Shown here: in pieces, positions 3,553-62,896 of the stretch | How the letters are laid out: every line of letters begins with the position of its first letter | How positions within the stretch are numbered: position 1 is the first letter of the stretch | Origin: Dactylorhiza incarnata | Taxonomy: Eukaryota > Streptophyta > Magnoliopsida > Asparagales > Orchidaceae | DNA length: 64,000 nucleotides | NCBI GenBank assembly: GCA_033032865.1 | Contig: JAWHQI010000040.1 | Location: forward strand, 11,205,001-11,269,000 | Reading direction: 5' to 3' | Notes under the pieces: generated by a model | What the model was told of the DNA's origin: nothing | Seen by the model: only the letters and a program-made list of their open reading frames with translations | The model's database searches: none | Made by a program: the position numbers and the translations under genes

Positions 3553-4525
3553 ATGTTCTTCTTCTTTAGTAGTTTTCATGCATTGTTAAGTGCCACTTTC
3601 AGTGGCTGGATTCGTGGTTGTGCTGGAACAGGTGTCATGCAGGTGTTTCCGGTACAATTCTGTACAGGAACACAGCGCACGATCACTGGTTCTATTGCGC
3701 ACGACACTGGTCGTGCGCCACTGATCGTGTGCACTTACCCCCTGAAATCTGAGTTCTATCTTCCTTATCGCACGACCATTTACGATAGTGCGCACGACCA
3801 CTGGTCGTGCGCCACTGGTCGTGCGAACATTTTATTTTATAAATTTCTTACATTGCAGGCTCCGCCCCAGGTAGGCGCACGATCACAGAACTCCAGCGCG
3901 CACGACCACTGGTCGTGCGCCAATGACCGTGCGCACTGTTTATTCCAGCGCCTATAAATATTCCTGCCCGCGATTTAGGTCGCATCCTTCACTTTTTTTC
4001 TCGCCCAGCTCCGCCGTTCCGCCCATTTTCGCAGGTGTTCGCCCCCTAGGCCTCCCCATCATCCAAGGGCTTCAAGGAGGAGATTCTACACTCATCTTCA
4101 TCGCCAAGGAAGAAGTTCTTCGCATCGGACGTGGCCGGATTGTACAACGCTAGAGAAGACGGGTCCATTGGGAGGTGTGACAGCCCTCCTCTACCCCGGA
4201 CGATAGTTGGGACCGAGCTAGGACGCGGATTGACAACCTGGTGCTTCCTACCGTGAATCTACAACGAGCCTCCGGATTCGGTCGTATCTCTTGCCTTTTT
4301 CTCTTCCTTATGTTGATGTAATGTTTGTAATCTCTATATTTTGATGATGTATGCTATGAACTATGCTTTGTAATGCTTATTTCATTTATTTGGAATTATT
4401 TAGTTCATATGTGTTAATGAGGTGCGCCGCCATTCATTTTCCACTCCACCACCGTGCCCGGTGCCGCACTAGCAATTGCTAGTGAATTGCTAGTGGCGTG
4501 CTTGTCGACGAGGTGCTTGCGACCC
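3553..4525 (+). repeat. LTR E (plus strand), 3' truncated
   Basis: A plus-strand LTR-like promoter unit. It has a palindrome array (3660-3945), a TATA box CCTATAAATATT at 3951, and a leader and R-U5 stretch to about 4525. Its right end (about 4380-4525) is similar, in inverted orientation, to LTR D at 2930-3100, including ACTAGCAATTGCTAGT, so D and E belong to related families. The expected U5 end and primer site are missing, and SIRE ORF3 sequence starts at about 4530. It is a fragment, and the left border is a guess. Confidence 0.5.
3660..3945. repeat. Palindromic GCACGACCA/TGGTCGTGC array upstream of TATA
   Basis: Units such as GCACGACCACTGGTCGTGC are inverted repeats with 9-bp arms around one central base. 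They recur near 3798, 3817 and 3900, with half-sites (TGGTCGTGCGCC, GCGCACGATCAC) between. The array ends about 10 bp upstream of the CCTATAAATA box. It has the same position relative to TATA as the GC-rich palindrome arrays in the Athila A, Athila B and SIRE 4 LTRs, but the motif is different. Confidence 0.8.
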
Positions 4526-5715: not shown

Positions 5716-5809
5716 TTCTTCTGAAGGATAGGTCGTTGAGAAGGGAGGGAGAAGGGTTCATCTCGTCGGCTAGGTTAATGGAAAGTGTAATTAACTAATC
5801 AACATTTTA

Positions 5810-5822
5810 ATATTTATAGGGG
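5810..5822 (-). promoter_or_regulatory. TATA box upstream of SIRE 1 ORF3
   Basis: On the minus strand the sequence reads CCCCTATAAATA, a strong plant TATA consensus, about 100 bp upstream of the ORF3 ATG (5715). A palindromic CTCAGC/GCTGAG array lies a further ~110 bp upstream. It suggests a promoter inside the element serving ORF3. This is inference; transcription start data would be needed. Confidence 0.6.
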
Positions 5823-11977: not shown

Positions 11978-12913
11978 TGATGGTGCAAAACTATGCTTGC
12001 AAACGACAACGGCAAGTGTACCGTATCGAATGTAGTATAGGTTATTAAAACAAGGTCGTATTAGACTCGGGGCGGCTGATTATTCTTACTTCAGAAAATC
12101 TCTATTATTTTATCGAAAGAAACTTGGGTTGGTTGGTTGCAAGAAAGAGAAATAATTTGTTAAAACTATGATTAAAAGGATTAGCACTCAACCTTGAATC
12201 ACCCTGGAAAAATAAATAAATAAAGAAATAAAACTTCTAATCCTCTTTAAAAGAAATGCTTGACCGTGGAGGTTCCCGATTTATAAATATACCTCTCTCA
12301 AGGATACGCTTAACTGAGTTTAGGTTGATCAATCGAACTCTCGTTCTAGAATCAAAACCCCTAAAACTCGCCTTATCGAAGTGAACCCCTCTATTGGATA
12401 TAACTCCAATCCGGGAGATTTATGTCGTCCTCTCTCGAGGAGTGCATTCAAATCTCTTTATCCTTGAAATGATCGATTCGAACTCAAAACCTCTCGGTTA
12501 TTAGACTACGAAAACAAGAATGAGATTATATATCGATAATATAATCTCAATCAATATAAATTCAAGGATAAATCTTAAGCGATCTAAATAAGAGAAAAAG
12601 AAGTTCTAAACTAAATTATGAATTATATTTTCCTTAGATCATCTCGACTGAGTACTAATGAAATTTAGCTACTCATGGATATGGAGGAATTGAAAGCAAT
12701 AAAAGAGTACATAATGGAAAAGAGAATAGAATACAAGAAAAGAGAACTAATTTTATTGATTTGCAAAAGAAATTACAACTAGGAATTAAAAGCTACAAAC
12801 CCGAAATGAAAGTGCAGCTAAGAAAGAAGATTACAAGCTTAAGAATGACAAAAATAGTGCAAGAAAATATACTAGAACTCCAAAACTTCGTCCTCAAACA
12901 TCTGGAAAAGCTC

Positions 12914-12926
12914 CCTTTAAATATGC
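12914..12926 (-). promoter_or_regulatory. Athila A LTR TATA box
   Basis: The minus-strand sequence GCATATTTAAAGG lies about 12 bp downstream of the palindrome array. The same box is in the 5' LTR at 21907-21919, where it would drive the genomic transcript leftward. The box and its spacing to the array match the layout of the Athila B and SIRE 4 LTRs. Confidence 0.65.
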
Positions 12927-12937
12927 AAAATTTTGGT

Positions 12938-13401
12938 GTTACACGCCCGTGACCAAGGGCGTGTAAGGGGCGTGATTTGCTGTCAGTGGAGAAGGCGCCG
13001 TCTGGCTTCAATAGAGGCGTTACGGACGTGTCACACCCTAAGTCACGCCCGTGACCTGGGGCGTGTAATCTTTAAAACTCACTGCTGGCGGGAAGCTTCG
13101 GCGGGAAATTGGCGCTGGAAGAGCCACGCCCGTGTACTGGATGTCACGCCTCAAATGTCACGCCCGTGACTTGATGTTACGCCCGTGATGGGGGGGGGGG
13201 GGGGGCGTGTAATTTTAATTGACGTGGCAGCTGGCTCTGAACGCTTGTGGCGGGTCACGGCCGTGACATTGGGTCACGCCCGTGACCTGGGGCGTGTACT
13301 TGGCGAACTTTTCACAGAGCGTCCCCGGAGTGGCAGAAACAGGTCTGGAACACTACGCAGGTTACACGCCCATGGTCACGCCCGTGACCTGGGGCGTGTA
13401 A
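12938..13401. repeat. GTCACGCCCGTGAC hairpin array, Athila A left LTR
   Basis: About six units of (GT)CACGCCCGTGAC(C), several extended to hairpins of the type TTACACGCC...GGCGTGTAA. Full units lie near 12939, 13043, 13158, 13253-13300 and 13361-13401. The arms are rich in CpG. The array occupies U3, directly upstream of the TATA box. The right LTR holds the matching array at 21931-22388. Open frames over the array (HARDxGRV repeats) are by-products of the repeat. Confidence 0.9.
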
Positions 13402-13575
13402 ATACATTTTCTGCTCCAAATGTCCAGAAAACCTGAAAATATAAAATAAACATAAGTTAGCTTATGAAATTAACATAGGAAAGATTTATGCGAAATAATT
13501 TATAAAAATAACATAATTTCATAATAAAATTATAATAAAACTATACTAAAAGATGAGTAAATAAATTACTCATCA

Positions 13576-20970: not shown

Positions 20971-22562
20971 TGATGGTGCAAAACTATGCTTGCAAACGTC
21001 AACGGCAAGTGTACCGTATCGAATGTAGTATAGGTTATTAAAACAAGGTCGTATTAGACTCGGGGCGGCTGATTATTCTTACTTCAGAAAATCTCTATTA
21101 TTTTATCGAAAGAAACTTGGGTTGGTTGGTTGCAAGAAAGAGAAATAATTTGTTAAAACTATGATTAAAGGATTAGTACTCAACCTTGAATCACCTTGGA
21201 AAAATAAATAAATAAAGAAATAAAACTTCTAATCCTCTTTAAAAGAAATGCTTGACCGTGGAGGTTCCTGATTTATAAACGTACCTCTCTCAAGGATACG
21301 CTTAACTGAGTTTAGGTTGATCAATCGAACTATCGTTCTAGAATCGAAACCCCTAAAACTCGCCTTATCGAAGTGAACCCCTCTATTGGATATAACTCCA
21401 ATCCGGGAGATTTATGTCGTCCTCTCTCGAGGAGTGCATTCAAATCTCTTTATCCTTGAAATGATCGATTCGAACTCAAAACCTCTCAGTTATTAGACTA
21501 CGAAAACAAGAATGAGATTATATATCGATAATATAATCTCAATCAATATAAATTCAAGGATAAATCTTAAGCGATCTAAATAATAGAAAAAGAAGTTCTA
21601 AACTAAATTATGAATTATATTTTCCTTAGATCATCTCGGCCGAGTACTAATTAAATTTAGCTACTCATGGAGATGGAGGAATTGAAAGCAATAAAAGAGT
21701 ACATAATGGAAAAGAGAATAGAATACAAGAAAAGAGAACTAATTTTATTGATTTGCAAAAGAAATTACAACTAGGAATTAAAAGCTACAAACCCGAAATG
21801 AAAGTGCAGCTAAGAAAGAAGATTACAAGCTTAAGAATGACAAAAATAGTGCAAGAAAATATACTAGAACTCCAAAACTTCGTCCTCAAACATCTGGAAA
21901 AGCTCCCTTTAAATATGCAAAATTTTGGTGTTACACGCCCTTGGTCACGCCCGTGACCAAGGGCGTGTAAGGGGCGTGATTTGCTGTCAGTGGAGAAGGC
22001 GCCGTCTGGCTTCAATAGAGGCGTTACGGACGTGTCACACCCTAAGTCACGCCCGTGACCTGGGGCGTGTAATCTTTAAAACTCACTGCTGGCGGGAAGC
22101 TTCGGCGGGAAATTGGCGCGGGAAGAGCCACGCCCGTGTACTAGATGTCACGCCTCAAATGTCACGCCCGTGACCGGGGGGCATGCAATTTTAATTGACG
22201 TGGCAGCTGGCTCTGAACGCTTGTGCTGGGTCGCGGCCATGACATTGGGTCACGCCCTTGGTCACGCCCGTGACCTGGGGCGTGTAGTTGGCGAACTTTT
22301 CACAGAGCGTCCCCGGAGTGGCAGAAACAGTTCTGGAACACTACGCAGGTTACACGCCCATGGTCACGCCCGTGACCTGGGGCGTGTAAATACATTTTCT
22401 GCTCCAAATGTCCAGAGAACCTGAAAATATAAAATAAACGTAGTTAGCTTATGAAATTATCATAGGAAAGATTTATGCGAAATAATTTATAAAAATAACA
22501 TAATTTCATAATAAAATTATAATAAAACTATACTAAAAGATGGGTAAATAAATTACTCATCA
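20971..22562 (-). repeat. Athila A 5' LTR (right)
   Basis: 1,592 bp. It pairs with 11978-13575. It contains the palindrome array 21931-22388, including a perfect 40-nt hairpin at 21931-21970 with 19-bp arms and a 2-nt centre, and a TATA box at 21907-21919. Transcription would run leftward into gag. Confidence 0.95.
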
Positions 22563-24794
22563 CCATCAGTGCTACCCATACCGAGTTATTATAACTCTTA
22601 TGCAGTAGCGTGTGTATAACATGGAAATTACTCTACAAGATCCTGTAGGACTACTTGTGTGTACGGTGTCATATTATATTTTACTAAATAAGTAAGCCCG
22701 AACATATCACCAATATTCAATCCTCATGCACAAATCACAACGTGTTTCAACACGATTAAAGCTATCAACCTTATTGAGAGGTTATCACCAATCTAAACCA
22801 TCCAATATATTATCAAGTGATATGAATATTAAATCATACATGTTCCCCCACACTCAATATTTAGATGCTCATCGTAATGTTTCATTCAACATAATAATTG
22901 CCCACAACACGTTCAGTCAAAATGCACATCCAAGAAGTTCTACTCAGCTCCGAACATGATCTACTTTCCTTCCCTCCATGGGATGGACTTCAACAGTAGG
23001 ATTATATCAACTATAATCATCATATGCCCATTCCCTAAGGAATCATATTCACGTAATAATTTATAACATAATATTTAATCAAGAGATTATTTCAGAACTG
23101 AATCCTCTGAAATTTTTACATAGCTCATACCCGTCATTTTGAACATCTCCCCCAAATATAAGTCTCATCAATTATTACCATAATTATGCATCACAATGTC
23201 CTATTTCCAAATCATAACGTTCATCTACGCCTCGCTCAATTGACATGGGAATCTAGGAACTCCTACCACCAAAAGGGGGAAACCTGATGTTCTATGTTCT
23301 CTACCGCCGGGCGCTAGTGATCCAGACGACAAACCTTCCTGTCAACATTGGATGTCGACGGGAAGTTAGCCCTTCCCGTCGACAAGTCGACCTGTTAGCA
23401 CCGGCGGTAGCGCTACCGCCGGGCGCTAGGAACTCTATCAGCGCTCTGTCGCATCGACATTAAGTGTCGACACGAAGTTATCCCTTCACGTCGACAAGTC
23501 GACCCGCTAGAGCAGGCGGTAGCGCTACCGCCAGTCTCTAGTGACTCTATCAGCACTTCGTCCCGTCGACATTAAGTGTCGAAGGGAAGTTATCCCTTCC
23601 CGTCGACAAGTCGACCCGCTAGCGCCGATGGTAGTACTACCGCCGGTTGCTAGTGACTCTATCAACACTCCTTCCCGTCGACATTAAGTGTCGACGGGAA
23701 GTTATCCCTTCCCATCGGCAAGTCGACATGCTAACGCCTGGTGCTATCTAACATAGAACAAATCCTTTGTTAAACACATCCCCTTTTCTTCCTGTGAACT
23801 CTCAACTCCAATTAAGATCAATTCTTTCTTCCCTTAGTTGCTGGACTTTCACCACTACTCATGTGTCCCCTTATTAATCAAGTGCAATATTTATAATTAA
23901 AACTCTCTTTAACAAGGGACTATTCATCATCTTCCCCAAACAAGAATTATGTCATTTCACCTTCTCTCCTCCAATACTCCCTCATTAGGCCACCGATCTT
24001 CACAAAACCAGCTCCATAAACTTCATATTGAAGAGGGGAGTTGAACGAAGACATACACGTGGCGAACGATGCCCTAGATCATACGCTCTAGCGTGGCCAC
24101 TTCCTACGAAACTCCATTAATCTCGCTAAATCAAGCTCTTTTGAGCTCAATTTCTCTCCTAATTAGATATAAAGATCTAGCACCAAGGGCGAGGGGTCAG
24201 AAATCACCTGATTTCCGACCGATGATCGCGGTTGTCTCCTCGGCGGCATGACGACGGTCGACCGATCTCAAGTCCTTCTCCAAGCTTGCTCCTTCAAGAA
24301 CCCTAAGTTAACACCTTTAGGTGTGAGGAAGAAGATGATGAAGAATAAGAAGAAGAAGATGAATAGGGCCCTCTGATTAGGAGAGTTCAGCCCATTTGGG
24401 TTAGGAGACAAGGAAGAGAGAGAGAGAGAGATTTTCATTAATGAGTATTAAATGCAACCCATCTTTCCAAGCCTTATGTTGGAACTCCACAAATAGGTGC
24501 CAGCTGCATATTGGCTTTTAATTCCACCATTAACTTAGATTTAGGCAATTTAGGCCACCCACTATGGAAGAAATCACGTATACTGATTCGCCCGCTACCA
24601 CCGACATTAGCAGAAGCTACCTTCGGCGTTAGCTCCCTTCTACCAATCCTCTGCCATTTGCTTTCTAACTTCAAGGGACTCTTGGAGATCAGGGCACATC
24701 CATGGCTCCATTAGGACCTCAAAACTCCTACTGCCCAAGCATCTCCAATTGATTCGTGTCACTAGAGGGTTTTAGTTCGAATTGGGATGTTACA
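22563..24794 (-). repeat. Tekay/Del-like LTR, 5' portion (minus), right of nested Athila A
   Basis: On the minus strand the LTR begins TGTAACATCCCAATTC at 24794, a start typical of Tekay/Del LTRs. Just outside it, on the internal side, is TTAAATTTCGGGGACAAAAT, which resembles the 3' coding end and plus-strand primer region of that lineage, so this is the 3' LTR. Inside, an AG/CT-rich leader starts near 24435 and is followed by the 112-bp tandem array (23290-23750). A TTTAATACTCATTAAT stretch near 24445 may be the promoter. The LTR is interrupted at 22567 by Athila A and continues at 11977. Confidence 0.75.
23290..23750. repeat. 4 x 112-bp tandem repeat inside the Tekay-like LTR
   Basis: The landmark GTCGACAAGTCGAC occurs at 23378, 23490, 23602 and (mutated) 23714, an exact 112-bp period. 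Each unit contains an inverted repeat CTTCCCGTCGAC...GTCGACGGGAAG with a 7-nt loop, perfect in the last unit near 23668-23700, and a second GC-rich palindrome, GGTAGCGCTACC, with GCGCTAG words. It lies downstream of the probable start site, in the transcribed part of the LTR, unlike the U3 arrays of the other families. Confidence 0.9.
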
Positions 24795-26808: not shown

Positions 26809-27050
26809 GTCTTTTGATAAGGAGACTCTTAGAACCAAAGATCTTTTGATAAGGAGATCTTGAACCACAGATCTTTTGATAAGGAAATCTTGAACCACAG
26901 ATCTTTTAATAAGGATATCTTGAACCACAGATCTTTTGATAAGGAGATCTTGAACCACAGATCTTTTGATAAGGAGATCTGGAACCACAGATCTTTTGAT
27001 AAGGAGATCTTGAACCACAGATCTTTTGATAAGGAGATCATGAACCACTG
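26809..27050. repeat. 30-bp minisatellite in SIRE 2 3' LTR (8 units)
   Basis: AGATCTTTTGATAAGG recurs at 26839, 26869, 26899, 26929, 26959, 26989 and 27019, after a diverged first unit at 26809. Each unit contains GATCTTTTGATAAGGAGATC, a partly symmetrical word. The 5' LTR copy has two units fewer. Because 30 is a multiple of 3, all frames stay open (LIKRSVVQDL repeats), but this is not evidence of a protein. Confidence 0.95.
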
Positions 27051-27719
27051 AATCCTTTGGAAGAGGGATTCTTAAAACTCTTTACAATTGAGTTGAAGAG
27101 AGAAGGAAGAAGAAGAAGTAAGAAGAAGAATTATGTTCTCAGAATTCTATTGAATCCTTAAGCTTCTTTTCTTTTGCTGGATCTGCTAATGATGAACCTT
27201 TACTTATGATTGTGATAATTTGCAAGAGTTATAAGCTTCCGATCCTTTCTACTTTCTTCTGATTGAAATTTGGCTGCTATGAGATATTGATGAACCTTTA
27301 CTTATGGCTGTTCTGTTCTAAGAGGGAGTGCAATTCTTGTTTTTCTGTCTTTTAGGGTTCTATGAGGAAGAAGAAGAAGGAGGAAGCCCTAATCCACAAA
27401 ATGCAGACAATTGTGAATCAATGCTCTACTGTTCTTCTCATTGCTATTCTTATTTATTGTCGATGATTTAATTTGAATTCCTTTCCTATTTTGGGTTGTC
27501 CTAAAAAGGTATTGGGTGGACAATTAGTCTCTCTTCCTTCGTTTGTTCACGACCCATCTGCCAACTGTTTGAATCCTTTCCAAGAAAGCTTTTTCTATCT
27601 TCTTGAATGCTCCTCTCCATTCTAGGCAATAAATAAGCCGTTGTAGAATGTCTTTAGTGCTGTGGGCCCTCAGAGAGAGTGCAAAAGAAACAACTGAATA
27701 GGTTTCCTTTTCAGACTGT

Positions 27720-44492: not shown

Positions 44493-44570
44493 AAGTTTTA
44501 TTATGATATTAGTTGAATATTTTACTTCTTCACTTGATAGTTATAGTTGTTATGCGAGGGCAAGAAAGGT

Positions 44571-45443
44571 GATAAGTATTGATGCTGGAATGCCCCAGAT
44601 CGATTCCGCTCCCGGGCTCTCACTAGACGGGGGGTTTCAGGTTGATCTCTGGAGAGGCTGGCAAGGTGATAAGTATAGACGCTGGAATGCCCCATATCGA
44701 TTCCGCTCCCGGGCTCTCACTAGCAGGGGGGTTTCAGGTTGATCTCTAGAGAGGCTGGCAAGGTGATAAGTATAGATGCTGGAATGCCCCAGATCGATTC
44801 CGCTCCCGGGCTCTCACTAGACGGGGGGTTTCAGGTTGATCTCTGGAGAGGCTGGCAAGGTGATAAGTATAGATGCTGGAATGCCCCAGATTGATTCCGC
44901 TCCCGGGCTCTCACTATACGGGGGGTTTCAGGTTGATCTCTGGAGAGGCTGGCAAGGTGACAAGTATTGATGATGGAATGCCCCAGATCAATTTCGCTCC
45001 TGGGCTCTCACTAGACGGGGGGTTTCAGGTTGATCTCTGGAGAGGCTGGCAAGGTGGCAAGTATCGATGCTGGAATGCCCCAGATCAATTTCGCTCCCGG
45101 GCTCTCACTAGACGGGGGGTTTCAGTTTGATCTCTGGAGAGGCTGGCAAGGTGACAAGTATCGATGCTGGAATGCCCCAGATCGATTCCGCTCCCGGGCT
45201 CTCACTAGACGGGGGGTTTCAGGTTGATCTATGGAGAGGCTGGCAAGGTGACAAGTATCGATGCTAGAATTCCCCAGATCGATTCCGCTCCCGAGCTCTC
45301 ACTAGACGAGGGGTTTCAGGTTGATCTCTGTAGAGGCTGGCAAGGTGATAAGTATCGATGCTGGAATGCCCCAGATCGATTCCGATCCCGGGTTCTTACT
45401 AGACGGGGGTTTCAGGTTGATCTCTGGGGAAGTAGGCAAGGAG
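44571..45443. repeat. 9 x 97-bp tandem repeat in the Tat 3' region
   Basis: The word AAGGTGATAAGTAT or its variants (GACAAGTAT, GGCAAGTAT) begins units at 44571, 44668, 44765, 44862, 44959, 45056, 45153, 45250 and 45347, an exact 97-bp step eight times over. Units share GGAATGCCCCAGATCGATTC, CTCCCGGGCTCTCACTAGAC and TTTCAGGTTGATCTCTGGAG, with a few substitutions each. It starts 79 bp after the pol stop. The 3' untranslated region of Tat elements is a known source of satellite repeats. Open frames of 60-85 codons across it are repeat by-products. Confidence 0.97.
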
Positions 45444-45872
45444 ATGAATTCTTCATAAGCTCAGATTGATAAGCCTCAGGTTGGCGAGCCTTCGGCGCTG
45501 ACCCGGGCCTTCTCGCTCGGCGAGAAGAAAGATGTCGCACGATAGTATATGAGTGACGAGAATCAACCCTAAGCACTCCGGGGCATCCGATGCTCGGCAG
45601 AGAGGTCGCAGGCACCGGGGGGGAGGTGAGCTCTCATCGAGAAGGAAAGTACCTTGCGAAACCTAGAGGAAAACGCATACCTAAAGGGTAATAACCTTCG
45701 CAAAGACAAATATCGAGGCATGCGAGAACGAGATATCAACATGAGAAATAATATAGCGAGCACAGTACAAGGCGAAAAACATGCATCTATGCATTTCAGG
45801 GTTTGATTTACATGAAGCGGCGATCTCGCCAGCCCAAAACAAAACAAGAAATAAAACCAAAGATTACAAATA
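45444..45872. other. Tat 3' spacer after tandem array
   Basis: There is no convincing gene. GCGAG/CTCGC words are frequent (CTCGCTCGGCGAGAAG, GCGAGCCTTCGGC). It separates the tandem array from the end of antisense gene 1. It probably includes the 3' untranslated region of that gene. Confidence 0.6.
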
Positions 45873-47841
45873 TCAAGGATCACTCGCGAACCCTTCCTCG
45901 TCATCGCTGCTCTTCACTAGCGGGAGCGGGATGAAGAGCTCCTGGATGATGTCTTCCAGAGTCAAGTCGGCCGCGTCGGTAGCTAGGAGGCCGGCCGCCT
46001 TCATCGTCTGGAAGATATAACGAGCTGACTCGGTGGACTTCTCGCGGATTTCCTCATCTCGCGCTCGCCGCTCTTCCTTCAGGCGACGGGGAGAAGGGGG
46101 AACGACGACACGGGGGAGCTCGCAATTTAGAGCTTTTAGCCCGGCCACCTCGCCCTCCAGGTCCTGGATGCTAGCGTTGGCTCTTCCGGCAGCCTCGACA
46201 TCCTACAAATAAGATAAATTAAGGGAGCAAAATGGCCGAAGGAGAAGAGTGTGACGAGGTCTAGGTAACTCACCACACTACCCTCTACGGCGAGCAGCTT
46301 CTCCTTCAGCTGTGCGTTCTCGGCAAGAAGCCCTTGATAGGCCCTCGCGAGCTCCACGTTCTGAAGCTCCAGTTGCAAGCAGCACCTCCCCTTCATGTGG
46401 GCGAGCTCGACAGAGCGCAACTGAGACCTCGCGCTCTCGAAAGCGAGAGTCCTCGCAGTCTCATCTTTGTAAGCCCCCGCGTCCTCGCGTCCATAGAGGA
46501 CGAACGAGAAGTAAAAGGCATGACCGCTGACGGTCTCCTTCTCCACCCAGGTAGGGAGGATGGTGGAGATGTCCGCCCAGTTCATCTCTGGCTTCCAGTT
46601 CACCAAGAGCTCTCCGGTCTCATCCCGGCGCCTCTGGCCAAGACCGAAGTTATAGTGGTTGACGGGGATGGGCGGAGCGGAGGTTCTGGCAGCCTCCTAG
46701 CTGGGCTCATCATCCTCACCTCCTGCGGAGAGGCTGGTAAGGTCAAACTCATCAAAAGCGGCCTCGCCAGGCTCCTTCCCCATTGAGGAGGCGAGCGAGA
46801 CCTGGCTCGTCTTATTCTTTTTCTTCGGCGGGGATTTTGAGGGAAGGCCATGGCTACTAGAAGCCCCCGATCTCTTGCGAGAGGAGGGCTCACCTGGTGT
46901 GATGGCGCCTCGACAAGCTTCCTCCCCCATGGTCGCTAGAGCAAGGGTAGCGTCGGTCTTCCGATTGCTCGCGTAGGGGGGATGGATGGGGAGATCTCGC
47001 TCGCCTAAAAAAGTGTTGAAACTTTAATAAATGCGGGGTTACTGGGAATGGCAATAGTTATTGAGCAAGATCTTTACCTTCCCCAGCGAGCACTGGAAGC
47101 AGCGAGTCGAAGATGCGGCGGAGATGAACAACCACAAAGTTCTTCTTACAGAAGAACTGATAAAGGACGGCGTCATGTCCTCCGAGGGCATGGGCCGATA
47201 GGTGGTCTCGCCGTGCTGGACTGGCGAGATCGGGATATTGCCGAAGTTCCCCTTGACGAAGAGGAACTTCTGGGCCCAGAAGTTGGCCTTGTTGACGGTC
47301 TCGTCGACTTTAGGACCCGAGCCCACAAAGTAGGCGGTCCCGTCCTTATAGGCGCGGCGCGGAAGGAGAACAGCTTCCGAAAAACCGGAAGGCTGAACTC
47401 GATGCGCTCCTCGCACAGGTAGCATGCGAAAGCTGTGATCACCACCATGGCGTTAGGGGTAAGCTGACCCGGAACAACGCCGTAATGCGTGAGCACCCGG
47501 CGAGCAATAAGAAAACCAGGATTAGTTTATATAATGTGCGAGACTTGACCTGCAGAGAACAAGAAATGAGTGAGAGGGATTATTACCTGGCGAACTTCCG
47601 GCCACAAGGGGAGACGCAAGCCGACCGAGAAATGAGCGGTGGGGATGGCCAGCTCGTCGACAGGTGGCGCGTTGATCAAGTCGTTCTCGCTAGGATGGCG
47701 CGCCGCGAATGGAGGGGTGACGTAGTCGGCAACCGCGGTGAAGTATTCCTCGTCTGTCAGGTTGCAATGAAAGAAGCTATGGTCAGCGAAAGCCTTATCA
47801 ATCTTTCGCCGACCCTCCGACTCGTTAGCATCGCCGCCCAT
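45873..47841 (-). pseudogene. Tat antisense gene 1 (gypsy-type transposon domain), with introns
   Basis: It starts MGGDANESEG at 47841. Apparent exons are 47841-47587, 47496-47078, 47004-46274 and 46202-45873. The introns (90, 73 and 71 nt) begin GTAATA, GTAAAG and GTGAGT; two end in AG and the first now ends in GG. Joining exons 1 and 2 gives LPLWPEVRQ/VLTHYGVVPGQLTPN, typical of the 'putative gypsy type transposon' domain (Pfam Transposase_28) of Tat antisense ORFs, followed by 'KANFWAQKFLFVKGNFG'. Exon 3 is basic, then carries 'WADISTILPTWVEKE'; exons 3-4 form a coiled coil (RSQLRSVELAH, LQLELQNVELARAYQ). A TAG near 46700 and a frameshift near 47180 break it. Function unknown; such antisense ORFs are known in Tat elements. 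Confidence 0.7.
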
Positions 47842-48823: not shown

Positions 48824-50440
48824 TGATGAGATAAATTCGCGCTGCGCAAAATTAAAATATTATCCACGTATAATTCGATAAGGCAAGTGTACCTATCGCT
48901 TTATAGTATAGGATTTAGAAAATCAAGTGTCGTATTTTTCCGGGCTTGTTGAGTACTTCTACTCACAAAGAAGAGCTATTATTTTATCGATCGAAAGTTG
49001 GGTTTGTTTTGGAAAAACAATTTGGAGAAAATTAACTACGAAGAAAGATTATGATTAAAAGGATTTGCACCTGGTCTTGAATCCCTTTGAAATAAAATAT
49101 AATTTTATAAAAGATGAAACCGCAAACTCTTATTGAAATATCCTCGACCGTGGAGGTTCCCAAAATATGGTAGAGCCTCTCTCGAGAGAACTACCACCTA
49201 ACCTTAGGTTGATCGATTAAGACCCCTCGGCCAGTCGAAATCCCCTAAGCTTGCTTTAAGCGGTGAACCCCACTATTGGATTTGACTCCAATCCGAAAGA
49301 TTTGTGTCACCCTCTCTCGAGGAATGCATACAACTCTTTTTATCTTTGAGTGATCTCCTCGTTCGCATGGATCTCTCGATCACTAGCAAACGAATCATAG
49401 ATTGAAAGTCATATTCCGGACATATGAAATCAAAACAAAATAATTCAAAGATAAATCGAAGATAAACAAAACGAGAGTTTGCTAATTAGAAAGATTCAAA
49501 ACATATTTTATTTTATTCCAAAGTTCATCATGACCAAGTGCTAAAGGAAACTTAGCTACTCATCATAGTGATGGGAATACAAGTAGAAGAGGAAAAAGAC
49601 ATGATTAAGAAAACAACAATACTTGAATTAAAATAACAATAATAAAAACTTACAACTTTAGGAAAAAGTAGCTAGAACATAAAAAAACAGTAAACTAAAG
49701 CTGAAATTAAGCTCCAAAATTGCACACACCGACTTCTGGAGATTGCTGCCTTTTATAGATGAAAAAATGGGGAGTCACGCCCTTGGTCACGCCCGTGACC
49801 AAGGGCGTGTAAGCTGCGTAATTACTGTCATAAAAGCCCGGGACGTTGGGGAAGAGGAACCGCCAAAAATCAATTGCACGGCGGGTCACGGCCTCGGTCA
49901 CGCCCGTGACCAAGGGCGTGTCTTGAACGGGTCTGGAAACAGCGGGAAATGCCGCGATCTGGAGTTAATCTGGCGATTGCAGAAAAGTCACGGCCTCGGT
50001 CACGCCCGTGACCGAGGGCGTGTAAGCTAGAAACGGCGGGAGTTGATTGCTGGCTGAAATGAATGCAATCCGGGCGAGTCACGCCCGTGACTTTAAGGTC
50101 ACGCCCTCAGTCACGCCCGTGACAGAGGGCGTGTAATTTTAATCTGACGTGGCGGCTGACTTCTTTCAACTGGAATGCGCGGGGCTGGATCACGGCCGTG
50201 ACAAAATGTCACGCCCTAGGTCACGCCCGTGACCGAGGGCGTGTACTTTGCGATTTCGGCAGAAATACTCGAAATATTCTCCTGATTAGTCATATGAGCT
50301 TGAAATTGCTATTGGCAGCCCAAATTACCTGAAAATACAAAAATAATATAAATTAGTGATAAATTAACTAAAACTAAATTAAATTAAATTAATTATAAAT
50401 AAAATATTATGTGAAAATAACTATAAATATAGCATCATCA
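48824..50440 (-). repeat. Athila B 3' LTR (left)
   Basis: 1,617 bp. It pairs with 56384-57998, with very few differences. It includes the hairpin array 49774-50250 and a TATA box (CATCTATAAAAGG, minus strand, 49749-49761) about 12 bp from the array. The R-U5 part is related to Athila A but clearly diverged. Confidence 0.95.
49774..50250. repeat. GTCACGCCCGTGAC hairpin array, Athila B left LTR
   Basis: Hairpins with extended arms (TCACGCCCTTGG/CCAAGGGCGTG, CACGGCCTCGG/CCGAGGGCGTG) lie at 49774-49812, 49884-49922, 49987-50025, 50076-50134 and 50198-50243. The core GGTCACGCCCGTGACC is that of Athila A. Arm sequences differ between units but are complementary within each unit, so the pairing is kept. 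The right LTR holds the same array at 57332-57803. Confidence 0.93.
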
Positions 50441-52058: not shown

Positions 52059-53270
52059 CTAAGCATCATCGTCGTCGTCCTCCTGCTGATAATAAGCACG
52101 CAGATCAGCAAATTCCCGCTGCAGATGCTCCATAGAAGAAGCATGGCGCTGCTCGAGGGTATCAAAACGTGTGTCAAAATGAGTGCGCATGGACAGCTGC
52201 TCTGTCTGAATCTGATCCAAACGAGTGTGGATCCGCCCAAACTGCTGATCGAAATAAGTGGATGAGTCGGGCGCAGGGGGAAAATGCTGCTGTGGCGGCT
52301 GTGGAAACTACGGAGCTGGAGCAACGCCACCCGAATCAGCTTCGAAATCAAGATCGATCGGGTCGCCACCCACTTCGCCAGGAATGGCCTCGTACTCGCG
52401 GCCACGCCGACGCATCAAACCAAGGGCTCGGAGGTTTTGGAATGTGATAGGCGCAGACGTTTGGAGTGGAGACATGGGAGGAAGTGCATCCCAGAGCTCC
52501 AAATGCTTGGCCAAATAAGTAACAAATGAACCTCCATGAAGCGCACTAAGCCTCCGATTTTCGGCCTGATGCCGAAAAAACATCGCTAGCGCCGAACCAA
52601 GATTGAGGGGGACTCGTTCGTGCATGCTATATAAATATAACAGGTCCGCGCGGGTCACCACTCCATGGCTATCGCCGCGAGCGGAAAGTGTGAAAGTGAG
52701 GAGGTAGTGGAGATAGCGTAAGGCGGGGGAGAGGAGATGACTACCCTTGGATTTTTTAGGCGAATATGGATTGGGGTCGTTACTGATTTCCACCCAAAAT
52801 CCGGGAAGGTTATACTCACGAGGGAAATCAAGGGGGAGAGCGGTGTAGGCCTCCGTAAGAGTGAAGGCCTCGTCGCAGAAGCCCATGAGAACGTTGAACT
52901 GACGCAAAGGAAGAGTTTGCGAAAGCCCGCCCATTCGGAATTCAAGCATGTTGTCGGCCCCGGCCCAGTGGAAATCAAACGAAGAGAAAAACTCCACCGT
53001 CAGTTCGTAGTACGCCGGCTCCGAAATGGAGAAGAAAGGAGCCCAGCCCGGAGTAGTGAGTAGATCTCGCACCGCGTTCGCCTGCCCGAGGGTGGTGAGA
53101 ACGTTCCAATCGATGACGCGGAAAACTCCAAATTCTTTCCCATGGAGGCGAGTACTTCGGTCTTGATGAGTGGGATGGGAAAAATTGAGCATAGCCTCCG
53201 CATCAAAAGTTTCATCGGGGACTGAAGAGGAGGACTCGCCAATGGCGTGATTGCGGTGGCGGCCGGCCAT
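52059..53270 (-). pseudogene. Athila B env-like gene (ATHILA ORF family)
   Basis: It starts MAGRHRNHAIGESSS at 53270 and is open to a TAG near 52308, then continues in frame to a stop at 52059-52061 (404 codons in total with one stop). Residues ~60-200 resemble the Athila ORF (Pfam ATHILA) family: 'WAPFFSISEPAYYELTVEFFSSF', 'EFRMGGLSQTLPLRQFNVLMGF' and 'SPALRYLHYLLTFTLSARGDS'. After the TAG comes a coiled-coil-like tail (FDQQFGRIHTRLDQIQTEQL) ending in an acidic DDDDD run. No signal peptide or clear membrane helix is seen, so 'env-like' is positional. It sits 3' of gag, where pol would end in a complete element, ~105 bp after a TATA-like box. Confidence 0.8.
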
Positions 53271-53364
53271 TTGGAAGGAAGAAATGAAGTAATCGGCCAA
53301 ATATGAGAGAGAAGAAGGGAGAGATGGGGGACAAGGTGTGGAGAAAAGAGAGGGGGAAGGGGCA

Positions 53365-53375
53365 CTTAAATAGGG
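53365..53375 (-). promoter_or_regulatory. TATA box upstream of Athila B env-like gene
   Basis: The minus strand reads CCCTATTTAAG, about 105 bp before the ATG at 53270 and about 13 bp after the last hairpin of the internal array. The array-TATA spacing is like that in the LTRs of Athila A and B. A CT-rich leader follows. It suggests a subgenomic promoter. Confidence 0.65.
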
Positions 53376-53387
53376 AAAAATTCAGGT

Positions 53388-53950
53388 GTCACGCCCTCGG
53401 TCACGCCCGTGACCGAGGGCGTGTAAGGGGCGACACGTGAAATCTGGCGTGAGGGAGGAATCCGAGGCTTGACCGGTCAAAAAGCGGATTTTTCCCAGGT
53501 CACGCCCTCGGTCACGCCCGTGACCAAGGGCGTGTAACTGGCGAAATCAAAGAGGGCCGGGAATCCAATGTGCGATGGTCAAAAAGCGGTTCCCGGGCTG
53601 TCACCGCCCAGGGTCACGCCCGTGACCATGGGCGTGACTTGACTGTCACGGGCGTGACAATCAAACGACATCTTTGACCGGGTGCTGTGGAGGTGTTGCG
53701 CCAGCAGGATGAGTCACGACCGTGACCTTCAAATGTCACGGGCGTGACTCGATTTGTCACGGGCGTGACATTGTGAACTAAGCCCGTGAGTCCCGACTCA
53801 GGCCAAAATGTTCTTCCGTTGATGTCACGCCCGTGACCAAGGTTGGTCACGCCCGTGACTTTTACGGAAGATGAATGGAGTGCAACTCGTCGAGAGACTC
53901 GCCAGAAAAATGAATCGTAATGCGCCACGCCCTGGTCACGGCCGTGACTG
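53388..53950. repeat. Internal GTCACGCCCGTGAC hairpin array upstream of env-like gene
   Basis: At least two full hairpins (53388-53428 and 53499-53539, with arms CACGCCCTCGG/CCGAGGGCGTG) and a run of simpler units (53613-53660, 53710-53770, 53823-53860, 53927-53950), in which the orientation GTCACGGGCGTGAC also occurs. The motif is the LTR motif, but the unit order and flanking sequence are not those of the LTR, so it is not simply an LTR fragment. The next ~400 bp (53951-54330) is A/T homopolymer-rich with no gene. Confidence 0.93.
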
Positions 53951-54359
53951 AGACATTTTTTCAGAAATATTTTTTTTAGTTTGGTTTTGTAATTTTTTTA
54001 TCTCTTTTTTTTTTTGAAAATAAAAAAAAATAAAAAAAAAATATCAAGGTAATAAAATAAAATGAAAAATACTAAAAATAAAGTACCGACTTGGAGAGCG
54101 GAGTTTCATGCGTATGTGCGAGTGACCGTTATCTCGCAAATCTCCTCCAAACCTGCAAAAACCTAAAAATAGAATAATAACATTTTTATTTGTTTTTTTC
54201 TTTTTCATTTTTTTTTGTTTTTTTGTTTTTATTTTTATATGTTTTTTTTTTATTTTTAAAAACAAGAATAAAAATACTTAAAATTTTTTAAACGGAAGAA
54301 AAATAAAATAAAAATAAAAATAAAATAAAAACATGGGTTGCCTCCCAAGAGCGCTTTGG

Positions 54360-56269
54360 TTACGGTCGTTGAGCTCGACCATAGTGGCACGCCGGTCTGT
54401 ACCTCGTTCTAAATTTATCATCAAATGATGATAACGGCTTTGAGCGATGCAAGGTGGGTGAATTTGTTGCATGAATTAAAATATTCTCATACCTCATTCG
54501 GAGGAGAAGAGTGCCCTCACAAACGTCAAATATTGCTCGTGTAGTGGCCAAGAATGGACGACCAATGATTAAAGGTATCCCGGCGTCCTCTTCCATATCA
54601 AGGATAACAAAGTCTACCGGTAAAGTAGACTCGCCAACCTCAACTGGCACATCATGAATCACCCCTATGGGTGTCTTCACCGAGCGATCAGCTAATTGTA
54701 ATTTGATGTCGGTGGGGGTAGGTTCTCCTAACTGTAATTTTTGGGATAAACTATAGGGAATAATATTAACACTAGCGCCCAGATCGGCGAAAGCGTTTGA
54801 AAAATGAGTAGATCCTATAGTGCATGGAATATTAAAATTAGAATTAATATTATTAGCCCGCTCGATCAAACGAGCGGGGTAAGGAAGACGGGGTTGAAAT
54901 TCTAGAAGAGGAAGAGATGATGGGGTAGGTGAAATTTCCTCTTCAAGATCGGTGTCCGAATCATCCGCAAAGGTCACCGCCAAGACATTTGAAGTTGTCG
55001 GCGGTGTTCTTTTCGGCTGATCGGTGACCATTTTTAAAAGTTGCCCCACTTGATTCTCCAAATTCCGCAACGACCCTTGTAAATTGCGGACATCCACATC
55101 ATTTTTAGAAATATATTTATTAACCACCTCCTCGAGAGAAGGCGGTTTAGGGGCTTGCGGTGGAAGAGATGAATTTGGAGAAGCAAGGGGAGCATTACCC
55201 GTGTTACCTTGATTACCCCATGATAAATTGGGGTGGTTCCTCCAACCTGCGTGGTATGTGTTACCGTATTGATTGTTCCCCGGATTGAAGGGCGGCCGGT
55301 TCGGATTACCCATGTAATCCACATGCTCCGCCGTATTTTGATTAGGCTCCCAGGTAGGTGTAGAAGAGGGAGCAGTCATCCCTTCTAGTTTCTTGCTAAG
55401 TAACTTAACCTGTAGAGATAAATTAGTAAATGAATCAATTTCATACAGCCCGACCGGTTTATTTGAGCGCGACCGAGGTGTACTCCATTGATACGTATTC
55501 ATGGCCATACTCTCTAAAAGCTCTTGCGCGCCTGCCGGTGTTTTGTTATTCAAGGTACCACCGGCGGCAGCGTCAATCATTTGACGCGTTTGGGAATTTA
55601 GGCCGTTATAGAACGTCTGAATTTGCAACCAGTCGGGATTGCATGATGGGGGCATCAGCACAAATATTCCTTAAACAGCTCCCAAGTATCATAAAGTGTT
55701 TCCGATTCAACTTGGGAGAAAGAAATGATATCCTTACGCAATTGGGCTGATTTAGCGGGCGGAAAATATTTCGTGAAAAATTGTTCCGTCATTTGGGCCC
55801 ATGTGGTGATAGATCCTCTTGGAAGAGAACTGAGCCACTGCTTAGCTTTATTGCGCAAGGAGAAAGGAAAAAGCCGAAGCCTTATTGCGTCATCGGATAC
55901 CCCGTTAATTTTGAAAGTATCGCATATTTCTAGAAAACTAAAAATATGCGCGTTGGGATCCTCATCTTGAAGCCCATCAAATTGTACATATTGTTGTACC
56001 ATTTGAATGATGCTCGGCTTTAATTCAAAATTATTGGTCGCTATAGCAGGTCGAACAATACTAGAAGTGGTATCCTCTAGATCTTGAGAATTTGGATCAC
56101 CCATATTAGAAGAAGTAGAAGAAGAAGAAGAAGAAGAAGGAGAAGTGTCACCTACGGATTCCTCAATCAGATCTTGAGAATTTGGTCCTTGAAATCTTAA
56201 GCGTCGCCGAATGGTTTGCTCGATTTCCGGATCTAATTCAAGAAGATCGGACGGATTCCTTCGGGTCAT
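54360..56269 (-). pseudogene. Athila B gag-protease
   Basis: It starts MTRRNPSDLLELDPEIEQT at 56269. The gag core has 'FLEICDTFKINGVSDDAIRLRLFPFSLRNKAKQWL', 'PRGSITTWAQMTEQFFTKYFPPAKSAQLR'. One frameshift at about 55655-55661 separates it from a long open frame to 54360 with 'TFYNGLNSQTRQMIDAAAGG', an Asn/Pro-rich part, then the protease 'FADLGASVNIIPYSLSQKLQLG', 'LPVDFVILDMEEDAGIPLIIGRPFL' and 'TTRAIFDV', a complete Athila retropepsin. Apart from the frameshift it is intact. Pol motifs do not follow; the frame ends in a hybrid tail where the deletion joins post-integrase sequence. Confidence 0.9.
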
Positions 56270-56383: not shown

Positions 56384-57998
56384 TGATGAGATAAATTCGC
56401 GCTGCGCAAAATTAAAATATTATCCACGTATAATTCGATAAGGCAAGTGTACCTATCGCTTTATAGTATAGGATTTAGAAAATCAAGTGTCGTATTTTTC
56501 CGGGCTTGTTGAGTACTTCTACTCACAAAGAAGAGCTATTATTTTATCGATCGAAAGTTGGGTTTGTTTTGGAAAAACAATTTGGAGAAAATTAACTACG
56601 AAGAAAGATTATGATTAAAAGGATTAGCACCTGGTCTTGAATCCCTTTGAAATAAAATATAATTTTATAAAAGATGAAACCGCAAACTCTTATTGAAATA
56701 TCCTCGACCGTGGAGGTTCCCAAATATGGTAGAGCCTCTCTCGAGAGAACTACCACCTAACCTTAGGTTGATCGATTAAGACCCCTCGGCCAGTCGAAAC
56801 CCCCTAAGCTTGCTTTAAGCGGTGAACCCCACTATTGGATTTGACTCCAATCCGAAAGATTTGTGTCACCCTCTCTCGAGGAATGCATACAACTCTTTTT
56901 ATCTTTGAGTGATCTCCTCGTTCGCATGGTTCTCTCGATCACTAGCAAACGAATCATAGATTGAAAGTCATATTCCGGACATATGAAATCAAAACAAAAT
57001 AATTCAAAGATAAATCGAAGATAAACAAAACGAGAGTTTGCTAATTAGAAAGATTCAAAACATATTTTATTTTATTCCAAAGTTCATCATGACCAAGTGC
57101 TAAAGGAAACTTAGCTACTCATCATAGTGATGGGAATACAAGTAGAAGAGGAAAAAGAGATGATTAAGAAAACAACAATACTTGAATTAAAATAGCAATA
57201 ATAAAAACTTACAACTTTAGGAAAAAGTAGCTAGAACATAAAAAACAGTAAACTAAAGCTGAAATTAAGCTCCAAAATTGCACACACCGACTTCTGGAGA
57301 TTGCTGCCTTTTATAGATGAAAAAACGGGGAGTCACGCCCTTGGTCACGCCCGTGACCAAGGGCGTGTAAGCTGCGTAATTACTGTCATAAAAGCCCGGG
57401 ACGTTGGGGAAGAGGAACCGCCAAAAATCAATTGCACGGCGGGTCACGGCCTCGGCCACGCCCGTGACCAAGGGCGTGTCTTGAACGGGTCTGGAAACGG
57501 CGGGAAACGCCACGATCTGGAGTTAATCTGGCGGTTGCAGAAAAGTCACGGCCTCGGTCACGCCCGTGACCGAGGGCGTGTAAGCTAGAAATGGCGGGAG
57601 TTGATTGCTGGCTGAAATGAATGCAATCCGGGCGAGTCACGCCCGTGACTTTAAGGTCACGCACTCAGTCACGCCCGTGACAGAGGGTGTGTAATTTTAA
57701 TCTGACGTGGCGGCTGACTTCTTTCAACTGGAATGCGCGGGGCTGGATCACGGCCGTGACAAAATGTCATGCCCTAGGTCACGCCCGTGACCGAGGGCGT
57801 GTACTTTGCGATTTCGGCAGAAATACTCCAAATATTCTCCTGATTAGTCATATGAGCTTGAAATTGCTATTGGCAGCCCAAATTACCTGAAAATACAAAA
57901 ATAATATAAATTAGTGATAAATTAACTAAAACTAAATTAAATTAAATTAATTATAAATAAAATATTATGTGAAAATAACTATAAATATAGCATCATCA
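56384..57998 (-). repeat. Athila B 5' LTR (right)
   Basis: 1,615 bp, nearly identical to 48824-50440. The hairpin array is at 57332-57803 and the TATA box at about 57307-57319 on the minus strand. Point changes relative to the left LTR fall partly in hairpin arms (for example GGTCACG to GGCCACG near 57453). Confidence 0.95.
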
Positions 57999-62773: not shown

Positions 62774-62884
62774 TGTAGTTGTTGATTTTCGATTGAAAGT
62801 TTTGATGGAGAGATTTTCTAGGGCAGAGAATTTCGAACTAGGAATTCTAGGTTCAAGAAACCATAGGTACTGTCGAAGTGTCTT

Positions 62885-62896
62885 CCCTATTTATGG
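62885..62896 (-). promoter_or_regulatory. TATA-like box upstream of SIRE 3 ORF3
   Basis: The minus strand reads CCATAAATAGGG, about 115 bp before the ATG at 62773 and ~115 bp downstream of the GCTCGACGC array. The arrangement matches SIRE 1 and Athila B. Confidence 0.5.

What the first reader, a model, noticed from the sequence alone, without database searches (positions are those of the whole stretch)
53365..53950. LTR-type promoter module repeated inside the element upstream of the env-like gene (Athila B)
The LTR promoter of Athila B is a cluster of GTCACGCCCGTGAC hairpins followed ~12 bp later by a TATA box. The same motif cluster, again followed ~13 bp later by a TATA box (CCCTATTTAAG), occurs inside the element ~105 bp before the ATG of the env-like gene. 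Unit order and flanking sequence differ from the LTR, so it is not an obvious LTR copy. It looks like a dedicated internal promoter using the same regulatory code as the LTR, a way to express the extra gene separately from gag-pol.
Basis: partly seen in the sequence, partly recalled or inferred. Interest (0 to 1): 0.88.

Follow-up and report, generated by a model that had tools for sequence, protein, structure and literature searches.

The report
LTR-like internal promoter in Athila retrotransposon
Inside a plant Athila retrotransposon, the palindrome cluster and TATA box that mark its terminal (LTR) promoter occur a second time just before its extra gene, which looks like a built-in second promoter; a similar arrangement is known from an unrelated group of plant retrotransposons, so this may be a solution reached twice.

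Summary
Element B (minus strand, LTRs 57998-56384 and 50440-48824) has 10 GTCACGNNCGTGAC palindromes at 53948-53400, TATTTAA at 53372 and the extra-ORF ATG at 53270. All 69 near-matches in the window lie in four LTR arrays or this one (0.1 expected). The three TATA-proximal units repeat the LTR spacing (111, 102 bp) and TATA offset (15 vs 16 bp), but their spacers show no clear similarity to LTR spacers. The leader after the TATA has no ATG and no AG. Sister element A lacks the whole cassette.

The closest precedent is the Sireviruses (Ty1/copia; PMC2829016): of 13 with a palindromic motif in the LTR, 9 of 9 with ENV also have it before ENV, 0 of 4 without; but six ENV-bearing Sireviruses lack the motif. 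That paper called the motif Sirevirus-specific. Here the same logic appears in Ty3/gypsy, with a TATA in place. Best reading: a second promoter answering to the LTR's trans-factor. Transcription is untested; the ORF has no predicted transmembrane segment ('env' is positional) and ends at an in-frame TAG; a splicing rival stands; no further copy could be obtained.

The parts
56384..57998 (-). 5' LTR of element B; GAACT target duplication on its outer side
48824..50440 (-). 3' LTR of element B; GAACT target duplication on its outer side
57330..57815 (-). 5' LTR palindrome array, followed by TATAAAA
49770..50255 (-). 3' LTR palindrome array, extended units at cores 49799, 49910, 50012, 50123, 50233 (5' base), followed by TATAAAA
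54360..56323 (-). gag and protease open frames of B (Retrotrans_gag, Asp_protease_2); the part of A between 18557 and 15364 (reverse transcriptase to integrase) has no counterpart in B
53400..53948 (-). internal array of 10 GTCACGNNCGTGAC palindromes; extended 34-bp units at cores 53413, 53524, 53626
53366..53372 (-). TATTTAA, candidate TATA box, 15 bp after the last extended unit
53271..53365 (-). pyrimidine-rich candidate core and leader; no ATG and no AG before the ORF start; start of transcription about 53340 is inferred
52308..53270 (-). extra ORF, 320 codons from ATG to an in-frame TAG (52310-52308); ATHILA ORF-1 family PF03078
51818..51854 (-). PPT-like motif beyond the extra ORF, 94.6% identical to A 15135-15099; distal edge of the cassette missing from A
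54299..54387 (-). end-of-pol segment aligned to A 15364-15275; proximal edge of the cassette missing from A
54151..54170 (-). acceptor-like TTTTTGCAG/GT, basis of the rival splicing model

Best explanation
The segment 53948-53271 is a second RNA polymerase II promoter inside the retrotransposon. A DNA-binding factor that recognises the GTCACG/CGTGAC dyad, and that also acts on the LTR promoter, binds the internal array; TATTTAA at 53372 positions initiation near 53340; the short transcript carries the ATHILA ORF-1 ATG as its first ATG and ends in the 3' LTR. The extra gene is thus switched on by the same signal as the genomic RNA but is translated from its own mRNA. Shown: array, motif identity with the LTR, geometry, TATA-like word, clean leader, absence of the cassette from the ORF-less sister. 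Inferred: binding, initiation, separate mRNA, 3' end.
For: In this window the motif occurs only in LTRs and at this site (81 of 86 CGTGAC/GTCACG hexamers lie in the five arrays). Same unit spacing and TATA offset as the LTR while the spacers at the same places show no similarity (INT_s1/B3_s1 z -0.0, INT_s2/B3_s2 z -0.6; B3_s4/A5_s3 z 7.5 as a pair that the test does recognise). Internal units are closer to the B LTR (mean identity 0.885, 15 comparisons) than to the A LTR (0.791, 15; no significance test made). The 30-bp TATA linker resembles the A LTR linker (0 of 500 shuffles reach it) and the B LTR linker (8 of 500). First ATG after the TATA is the ORF start; five ATGs lie between the upstream acceptor-like site and it. 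G+C-rich blocks (over 0.5) in B are the LTR arrays and the array plus ORF, reminiscent of the CpG islands of Sireviruses. Sireviruses with the motif show the same placement in 9 of 9 with ENV and 0 of 4 without. In this window copia1 has a motif cluster (0 of 200 shuffles) and TATAAATA 103 bp before its extra-ORF ATG.
Against: No transcript data. One copy only. TATTTAA is a variant TATA. A plausible acceptor (TTTTTGCAG/GT, 54153/54152) and a donor-like GTAAGT (57212) exist, and splicing is the reported route for barley Bagy2 (PMC7264820). The ORF has an in-frame TAG in this copy. Six ENV-containing Sireviruses lack the motif (PMC2829016). CpG observed/expected is near or above 1 in much of B, so it does not single out the array; only G+C does. 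In copia3 the cluster before the extra ORF (GTCGA type) differs from the repeat (AAGATCT) in the direct-repeat pair taken as its LTRs, no TATA was found, and TTTGCAG/GT adjoins the ATG, so a shared code does not hold for every element here.
Confidence: 0.55

Rival explanations
1. The extra gene is expressed from a spliced LTR transcript (donor in the leader, acceptor near 54152), and the array is not a promoter.
For: Acceptor-like TTTTTGCAG/GT at 54153/54152, with a similar TCTGCAG/GT after pol in A; GTAAGT at 57212. Spliced env-type RNA is reported for Bagy2.
Against: The spliced leader would be about 880 nt with five upstream ATGs; between the AG inside TATTTAAG and the ATG there is no AG; the same donor word was not found at the matching place in A, whose listed donor-like words are at 21082 and 18583; ORF-less A keeps the acceptor-like site; the model does not explain LTR motif and TATA at this place.
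Confidence: 0.22
2. The array is a diverged relic of an LTR U3 brought in by recombination or template switching, without present function.
For: Unit spacing 111/102 and TATA offset match the LTR; weak spacer hints (INT_s2 against A5_s4 11 of 500, against B3_s1 23 of 500; ungapped INT_s2 against B3_s2 P 0.051); Athila families exchange segments by recombination (PMC2410132).
Against: No similarity beyond the TATA linker (INT_R against either LTR, z 0, though the two LTRs themselves reach only z 2.0 there, so this test is weak); spacers are near the chance level while two of three units keep 0.94 and 0.88 dyad symmetry (0.76 in the third).
Confidence: 0.12
3. The palindromes act in RNA (structure, dimerisation or packaging) rather than as DNA sites.
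For: Strong predicted fold of 53380-53680, z -8.7 with 0 of 100 shuffles as good, as any palindrome array would give.
Against: No Rfam match; three of 10 cores are inverted; the LTR copies lie upstream of the TATA; the TATA adjacency is unexplained.
Confidence: 0.05
4. The arrays are platforms for an element-encoded or host chromatin factor (anti-silencing or silencing), not promoter-proximal activator sites. Not exclusive of the best explanation.
For: VANC proteins bind short motifs that accumulate as tandem repeats in non-coding parts of their own element (PMC5735166). Nine of the 18 differences between the B LTRs fall in the 480-bp array, six of them at CpG, as methylation would cause.
Against: The 15-16 bp distance to a TATA in both places favours promoter use; no binding data.
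Confidence: 0.13

Closest known systems
Sirevirus repeated motifs (RM) in the LTR and upstream of ENV (Bousios et al. 2010, PMC2829016; author name recalled)
   Same: Palindromic short motif in the LTR before the TATA and again between pol and the extra gene; internal copies absent where ENV is absent; G+C/CpG-rich blocks; internal promoter proposed.
   Different: Sireviruses are Ty1/copia and the paper called the motif Sirevirus-specific; six ENV-bearing Sireviruses lack it; its CGG-CCG signature is met in only 2 of the 8 units compared here; the authors could not conclusively identify an internal promoter, whereas here a TATA lies at the LTR offset.
Athila of Arabidopsis, pol-less gag+env families (PMC2410132)
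   Same: LTRs + gag + env ORF without pol; purifying selection on gag and env is reported there.
   Different: The passages seen (12 of 42 places) describe no motif array; the word promoter has 0 occurrences in the main text.
Foamy virus internal promoter and Tas (PMC8670036)
   Same: A second promoter inside the element that shares its activator with the LTR promoter.
   Different: It lies in env, drives regulatory genes, and its activator Tas is known; here the factor is unknown.
Maize Grande gene23 (as described in PMC7264820)
   Same: Extra gene in the 3' internal region with its own promoter.
   Different: Antisense gene; no sharing of an LTR motif is mentioned in the passages seen.
VANDAL/VANC anti-silencing motif arrays (PMC5735166)
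   Same: Short motifs accumulated as tandem repeats in several non-coding regions of one element.
   Different: DNA transposon; protein-DNA binding was shown there, not here.

Membership tests
Athila lineage (Ty3/gypsy) | LTR pair with TG...CA ends and 5-bp target duplication | tested here: met
   TGATGATG...CATCA, GAACT on both sides
Athila lineage (Ty3/gypsy) | gag, protease, then RT/RNase H/integrase | tested here: inconclusive
   B has gag and protease only; A, alignable with B in gag, protease region, end of pol, 3' region and LTR, has RT, RNase H and integrase
Athila lineage (Ty3/gypsy) | ATHILA ORF-1 protein between pol and 3' LTR | tested here: met
   PF03078 36.6 bits, cut-off 20.2
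Athila lineage (Ty3/gypsy) | primer-binding site for tRNA-Asp | not tested
   TGGCGCCGTTGCCGGGG follows the 5' LTR; pairing with a tRNA was not computed
Athila lineage (Ty3/gypsy) | RT phylogeny within Athila | not tested
   no RT in B; no tree was built
Sirevirus RM/ENV architecture | palindromic RM cluster upstream of the LTR TATA | tested here: met
Sirevirus RM/ENV architecture | further RM copies between pol and the extra gene, absent when the gene is absent | tested here: met
   B has 10, ORF-less A has 0 between its LTRs; one element each
Sirevirus RM/ENV architecture | RM clusters define CpG islands | tested here: inconclusive
   G+C over 0.5 at the arrays and over the extra ORF; CpG observed/expected is high in most of B
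Sirevirus RM/ENV architecture | CGG-CCG signature | tested here: inconclusive
   CGG...CCG in 2 of 8 units (INT1, B33), judged by eye on the sequences
Sirevirus RM/ENV architecture | Ty1/copia Sirevirus | tested here: not met
   PF03078 ORF in B; RVT_1, RNase H and integrase of Ty3 gene order in sister A
Retroviral env | transmembrane segment | tested here: not met
   highest 19-residue Kyte-Doolittle mean 0.95 in the 320-codon ORF and -0.72 in the piece after the TAG, examined apart
Internal Pol II promoter | TATA at a fixed distance from regulatory sites, clean leader | tested here: met
   sequence only
Internal Pol II promoter | capped transcripts starting there | not testable with these tools
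   no RNA data available

The most novel reading that the evidence does not exclude
Two unrelated plant retrotransposon lineages (Sireviruses and Athila) independently evolved the same two-promoter design: one palindromic operator, repeated in the LTR and again before the extra gene, read by one trans-factor. The bold form is that the extra gene's own product (ATHILA ORF-1) is that factor, a Tas- or VANC-like autoregulator or anti-silencer, which would explain why operator and gene come and go together and why the internal motifs track their own LTR while the spacers do not.
Probability: 0.12. Interest if true: 0.88.

Novelty: new variant of a known kind. Interest (0 to 1): 0.62.

Why it matters
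How plant retrotransposons express the gene after pol, and what that gene does, is open. If an LTR-type operator array with a TATA stands before it in Ty3/gypsy Athila as well as in Ty1/copia Sireviruses, then separate promoters, not only splicing, may be a general route, and the shared motif gives a handle (EMSA, DAP-seq, ChIP) to find the factor that controls both promoters. Co-loss of operator and gene would also suggest that the gene product acts on the operator.

Tried and rejected
More copies: exact pattern scans of viral contigs and genome contigs found 0; the protein search in viral contigs found 1 patterned stretch and 0 relatives. These collections hold viral, bacterial and archaeal DNA, so the absence of plant copies says nothing. 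Protein homologues: one orchid protein, Platanthera zijinensis P0001, 50% identity over 46% of the ORF, whose first Met aligns with ours; a second search with the pair scored only the 7999 best-sharing candidates and found no other. Structure prediction from two sequences gave mean pLDDT 37.7 and was not used. The bacterial promoter scan is irrelevant to a plant. Rfam: no match. Motif letters in the paper library: 0 papers for four spellings. A resemblance between ATHILA ORF-1 and the DUF1985 domain of VANC is recalled only; Pfam at E up to 10 did not list DUF1985 for our ORF, so it is not claimed. Tandem Repeats Finder saw only a 21-bp cluster at 53713-53769 in the internal array. Papers opened but hardly used: PMC1142308 (Diaspora, an env-less member of the Athila/Calypso lineage; passages), PMC11963269 (Retand; passages).

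The within-window comparison of other extra ORFs was made after seeing the data. In the 6-mer test (17 regions) the 4 intervals before an extra ORF exceeded all or nearly all shuffles, but in copia2 and copia3 the top word was CTAGAA and GAGAGA, not the dyad motif (3 of 200 shuffles reached each), so only B and copia1 (0 of 200 each) are convincing. Six control regions without arrays gave 92, 19, 200, 84, 29 and 189 of 200; a seventh, 45500-47000, gave 4 of 200; the remaining six regions are known or suspected arrays (0 of 200 each). The labels copia1-3 are mine: copia1 rests on an RVT_2 match below the curated cut-off (25.2 against 31.6 bits) and an integrase frame, copia2 on DNA similarity to copia1 (no Pfam match of its own), copia3 on no Pfam match at all and on a direct-repeat pair assumed to be its LTRs.

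On re-checking I corrected the account of the Sirevirus paper (six ENV-bearing elements lack the motif; one of the 13 lacks the LTR TATA) and the CpG statement, and for that reason lowered the best explanation from 0.60 to 0.55 and raised the splicing rival from 0.20 to 0.22.

Full report
What is there. The window is plant DNA dense in retrotransposons. Element B (minus strand) has LTRs at 57998-56384 and 50440-48824 (98.9% identical), ends TGATGATG...CATCA and a GAACT target duplication. It encodes gag and protease. The stretch of its relative A that holds reverse transcriptase, RNase H and integrase (between A 18557 and 15364) has no counterpart in B. B carries an extra ORF of 320 codons (53270-52311) of the ATHILA ORF-1 family, PF03078, which ends at an in-frame TAG. 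Athila elements with gag and env but no pol are described in Arabidopsis (PMC2410132, passages). Element A (LTRs 11978-13575 and 20971-22562) has integrase and reverse transcriptase; between the end of its pol and its 3' LTR the longest sense open frame is 57 codons, so it lacks the extra ORF.

The observation. GTCACGNNCGTGAC occurs 10 times at 53948-53400 on the minus strand and otherwise only in the four LTRs (6, 5, 5, 5). With up to two mismatches the window holds 69 matches, all in these five clusters, against 0.10 expected. The unit is larger: a 34-bp near-palindrome, CACGCCCTCGGTCACGGGCGTGACCGAGGGCGTG in its best internal copy. After the last unit come 15 bp, TATTTAA at 53372, 95 bp of pyrimidine-rich DNA and the ATG at 53270. 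The LTR has 16 bp and TATAAAA. A TATA-like word in that place is expected in 0.6-0.9% of cases.

Copy of the LTR or not. The three TATA-proximal internal units are spaced 111 and 102 bp, as in the B LTR; the spacers between trimmed units are 71 and 62 bp in both. BLAST joins the two arrays at 65% identity over 282 columns, a match that the shared palindromes contribute to. The spacers alone, at the same places, are unrelated by alignment (z -0.0 and -0.6). The same test recognises one pair of A and B LTR spacers strongly (z 7.5) and the two internal spacers as relatives of each other (z 5.4), but several A-B LTR spacer pairs also score near zero, so its power is limited. Of the 16 comparisons of internal with LTR spacers the best are INT_s2 against A5_s4 (11 of 500 shuffles) and against B3_s1 (23 of 500), not significant after 16 tests. 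The 30-bp TATA linker is alike (0 of 500 shuffles against the A LTR, 8 of 500 against the B LTR). Beyond it no similarity was found, though there the two LTRs themselves reach only z 2.0. Ungapped, INT_s2 against B3_s2 gave 23 of 62 matches (P 0.051) and INT_s1 against B3_s1 23 of 71 (P 0.16). Internal units are closer to B's own LTR (mean identity 0.885 over 15 comparisons) than to A's (0.791 over 15). Motif and geometry were thus kept, or kept in step, while the rest was replaced. An ancient U3 duplication followed by selection on motif and spacing fits best; independent build-up is not excluded.

Promoter features. Between TATA and ATG there is no ATG and no AG, so a transcript starting about 30 bp below the TATA would carry the ORF start as its first ATG. 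In contrast the acceptor-like site at 54153/54152 would give a leader of about 880 nt with five upstream ATGs. The orchid homologue P0001 starts with a Met aligned to ours. Array and ORF together form a G+C-rich block (0.51-0.59 in 400-bp windows, 52.0-54.0 kb) in an element otherwise at 0.24-0.47 outside the LTR arrays; CpG observed/expected is near or above 1 in much of the element and is not distinctive.

The cassette. B 54387-54299 aligns with A 15364-15275 (end of pol) and B 51854-51818 with A 15135-15099 (a PPT-like motif). Between these A has about 140 bp and B about 2.4 kb holding array, TATA and ORF. Array and gene are therefore present or absent together in this pair; a single deletion or insertion would suffice, so this is weak evidence by itself.

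Precedent. PMC2829016 (passages; sections 9 and 10) reports palindromic repeated motifs in the LTRs of 13 Sireviruses, and in the linker upstream of ENV in nine of nine of these with ENV and none of four without. In those with a TATA (Tnd-1, one of the 13, lacks it) the cluster lies before the TATA. Most clusters coincide with predicted CpG islands. Six further ENV-containing Sireviruses lack the motif. The authors called the motif Sirevirus-specific and saw support for an internal promoter of ENV without identifying one. The present element is Ty3/gypsy and has a TATA-like word. In the listings of my paper searches I saw no report of this arrangement in Athila; the Athila4/Calypso paper (PMC155253) is not held, and most subscription journals are missing. 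PMC7264820 (passages) states that env-like genes are transcribed from the 5' LTR promoter and that splicing is reported for Bagy2.

Other extra ORFs in the window (labels tentative). In copia1, CTGAGA/CTCAGC dyads at about 6074-5935 precede TATAAATA at 5818 and the ATG at 5715 (103 bp), with ATGs at 5805 and, out of frame, 5761 in between. In copia2, four GTCGAGCG words precede ATAAATA at 62894 and the ATG at 62773 (121 bp), with another ATG at 62864; that frame stops after 52 codons. In copia3 a GTCGA-type cluster precedes the ATG at 30328, but no TATA was found, TTTGCAG/GT adjoins the ATG, and the repeat in its presumed LTRs is a different word. So a motif cluster before the extra ORF may be common; whether it matches the LTR motif could be checked only for B (yes) and copia3 (no), because LTRs of copia1 and copia2 were not identified.

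Mechanism and confidence. The most likely mechanism is a second TATA promoter that answers to the same factor as the LTR (0.55). The factor is unknown. The bold form, with the ORF product as factor, rests on analogy with foamy virus Tas (PMC8670036, passages) and VANC (PMC5735166, passages), plus co-occurrence, and is given 0.12. The structure model was too poor to test it (mean pLDDT 37.7).

Limits. One copy, no RNA, host unknown, own-genome search unanswered 13 times. 'Env' should be dropped as a functional name here: no transmembrane segment was predicted by hydropathy.

Noticed in passing
window 3676-3960, + strand: Another palindrome cluster (GCGCACGACCACTGGTCGTGCGC type, 0 of 200 shuffles) followed about 14 bp later by TATAAATA; looks like the promoter of a further element with a different operator.
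   Followed up: partly
window 6074-5715, - strand (copia1): CTGAGA/CTCAGC dyad cluster, then TATAAATA 103 bp before the ATG of the extra ORF, a layout like that of B.
   Followed up: partly
window 63100-62773, - strand (copia2): Four GTCGAGCG words and ATAAATA 121 bp before an extra-ORF ATG; the frame stops after 52 codons.
   Followed up: partly
window 30830-30328, - strand (copia3): Dense GTCGA/TCGAC cluster before the extra ORF, with TTTGCAG/GT just upstream of the ATG; the presumed LTR carries a different repeat (30-bp AAGATCT units, about 26810-27059).
   Followed up: partly
window 23337-23738: 112-bp tandem repeat with GTCGAC dyads near the 5' LTR of element A; owner unknown.
   Followed up: no
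window 51854-51818 and 15135-15099: Internal PPT-like motif after the extra-gene position in both B and A, 94.6% identical; PMC2829016 mentions one extra PPT in Athila4 and Calypso.
   Followed up: partly
window 44566-45445: Tandem repeats with a period of about 97 bp (about 91-93% alike) downstream of the integrase of the Ty3-type element that contains B.
   Followed up: no
LTR pair of B: Nine of 18 differences between the two LTRs lie in the 480-bp palindrome array, six at CpG, suggesting methylation of the array.
   Followed up: partly
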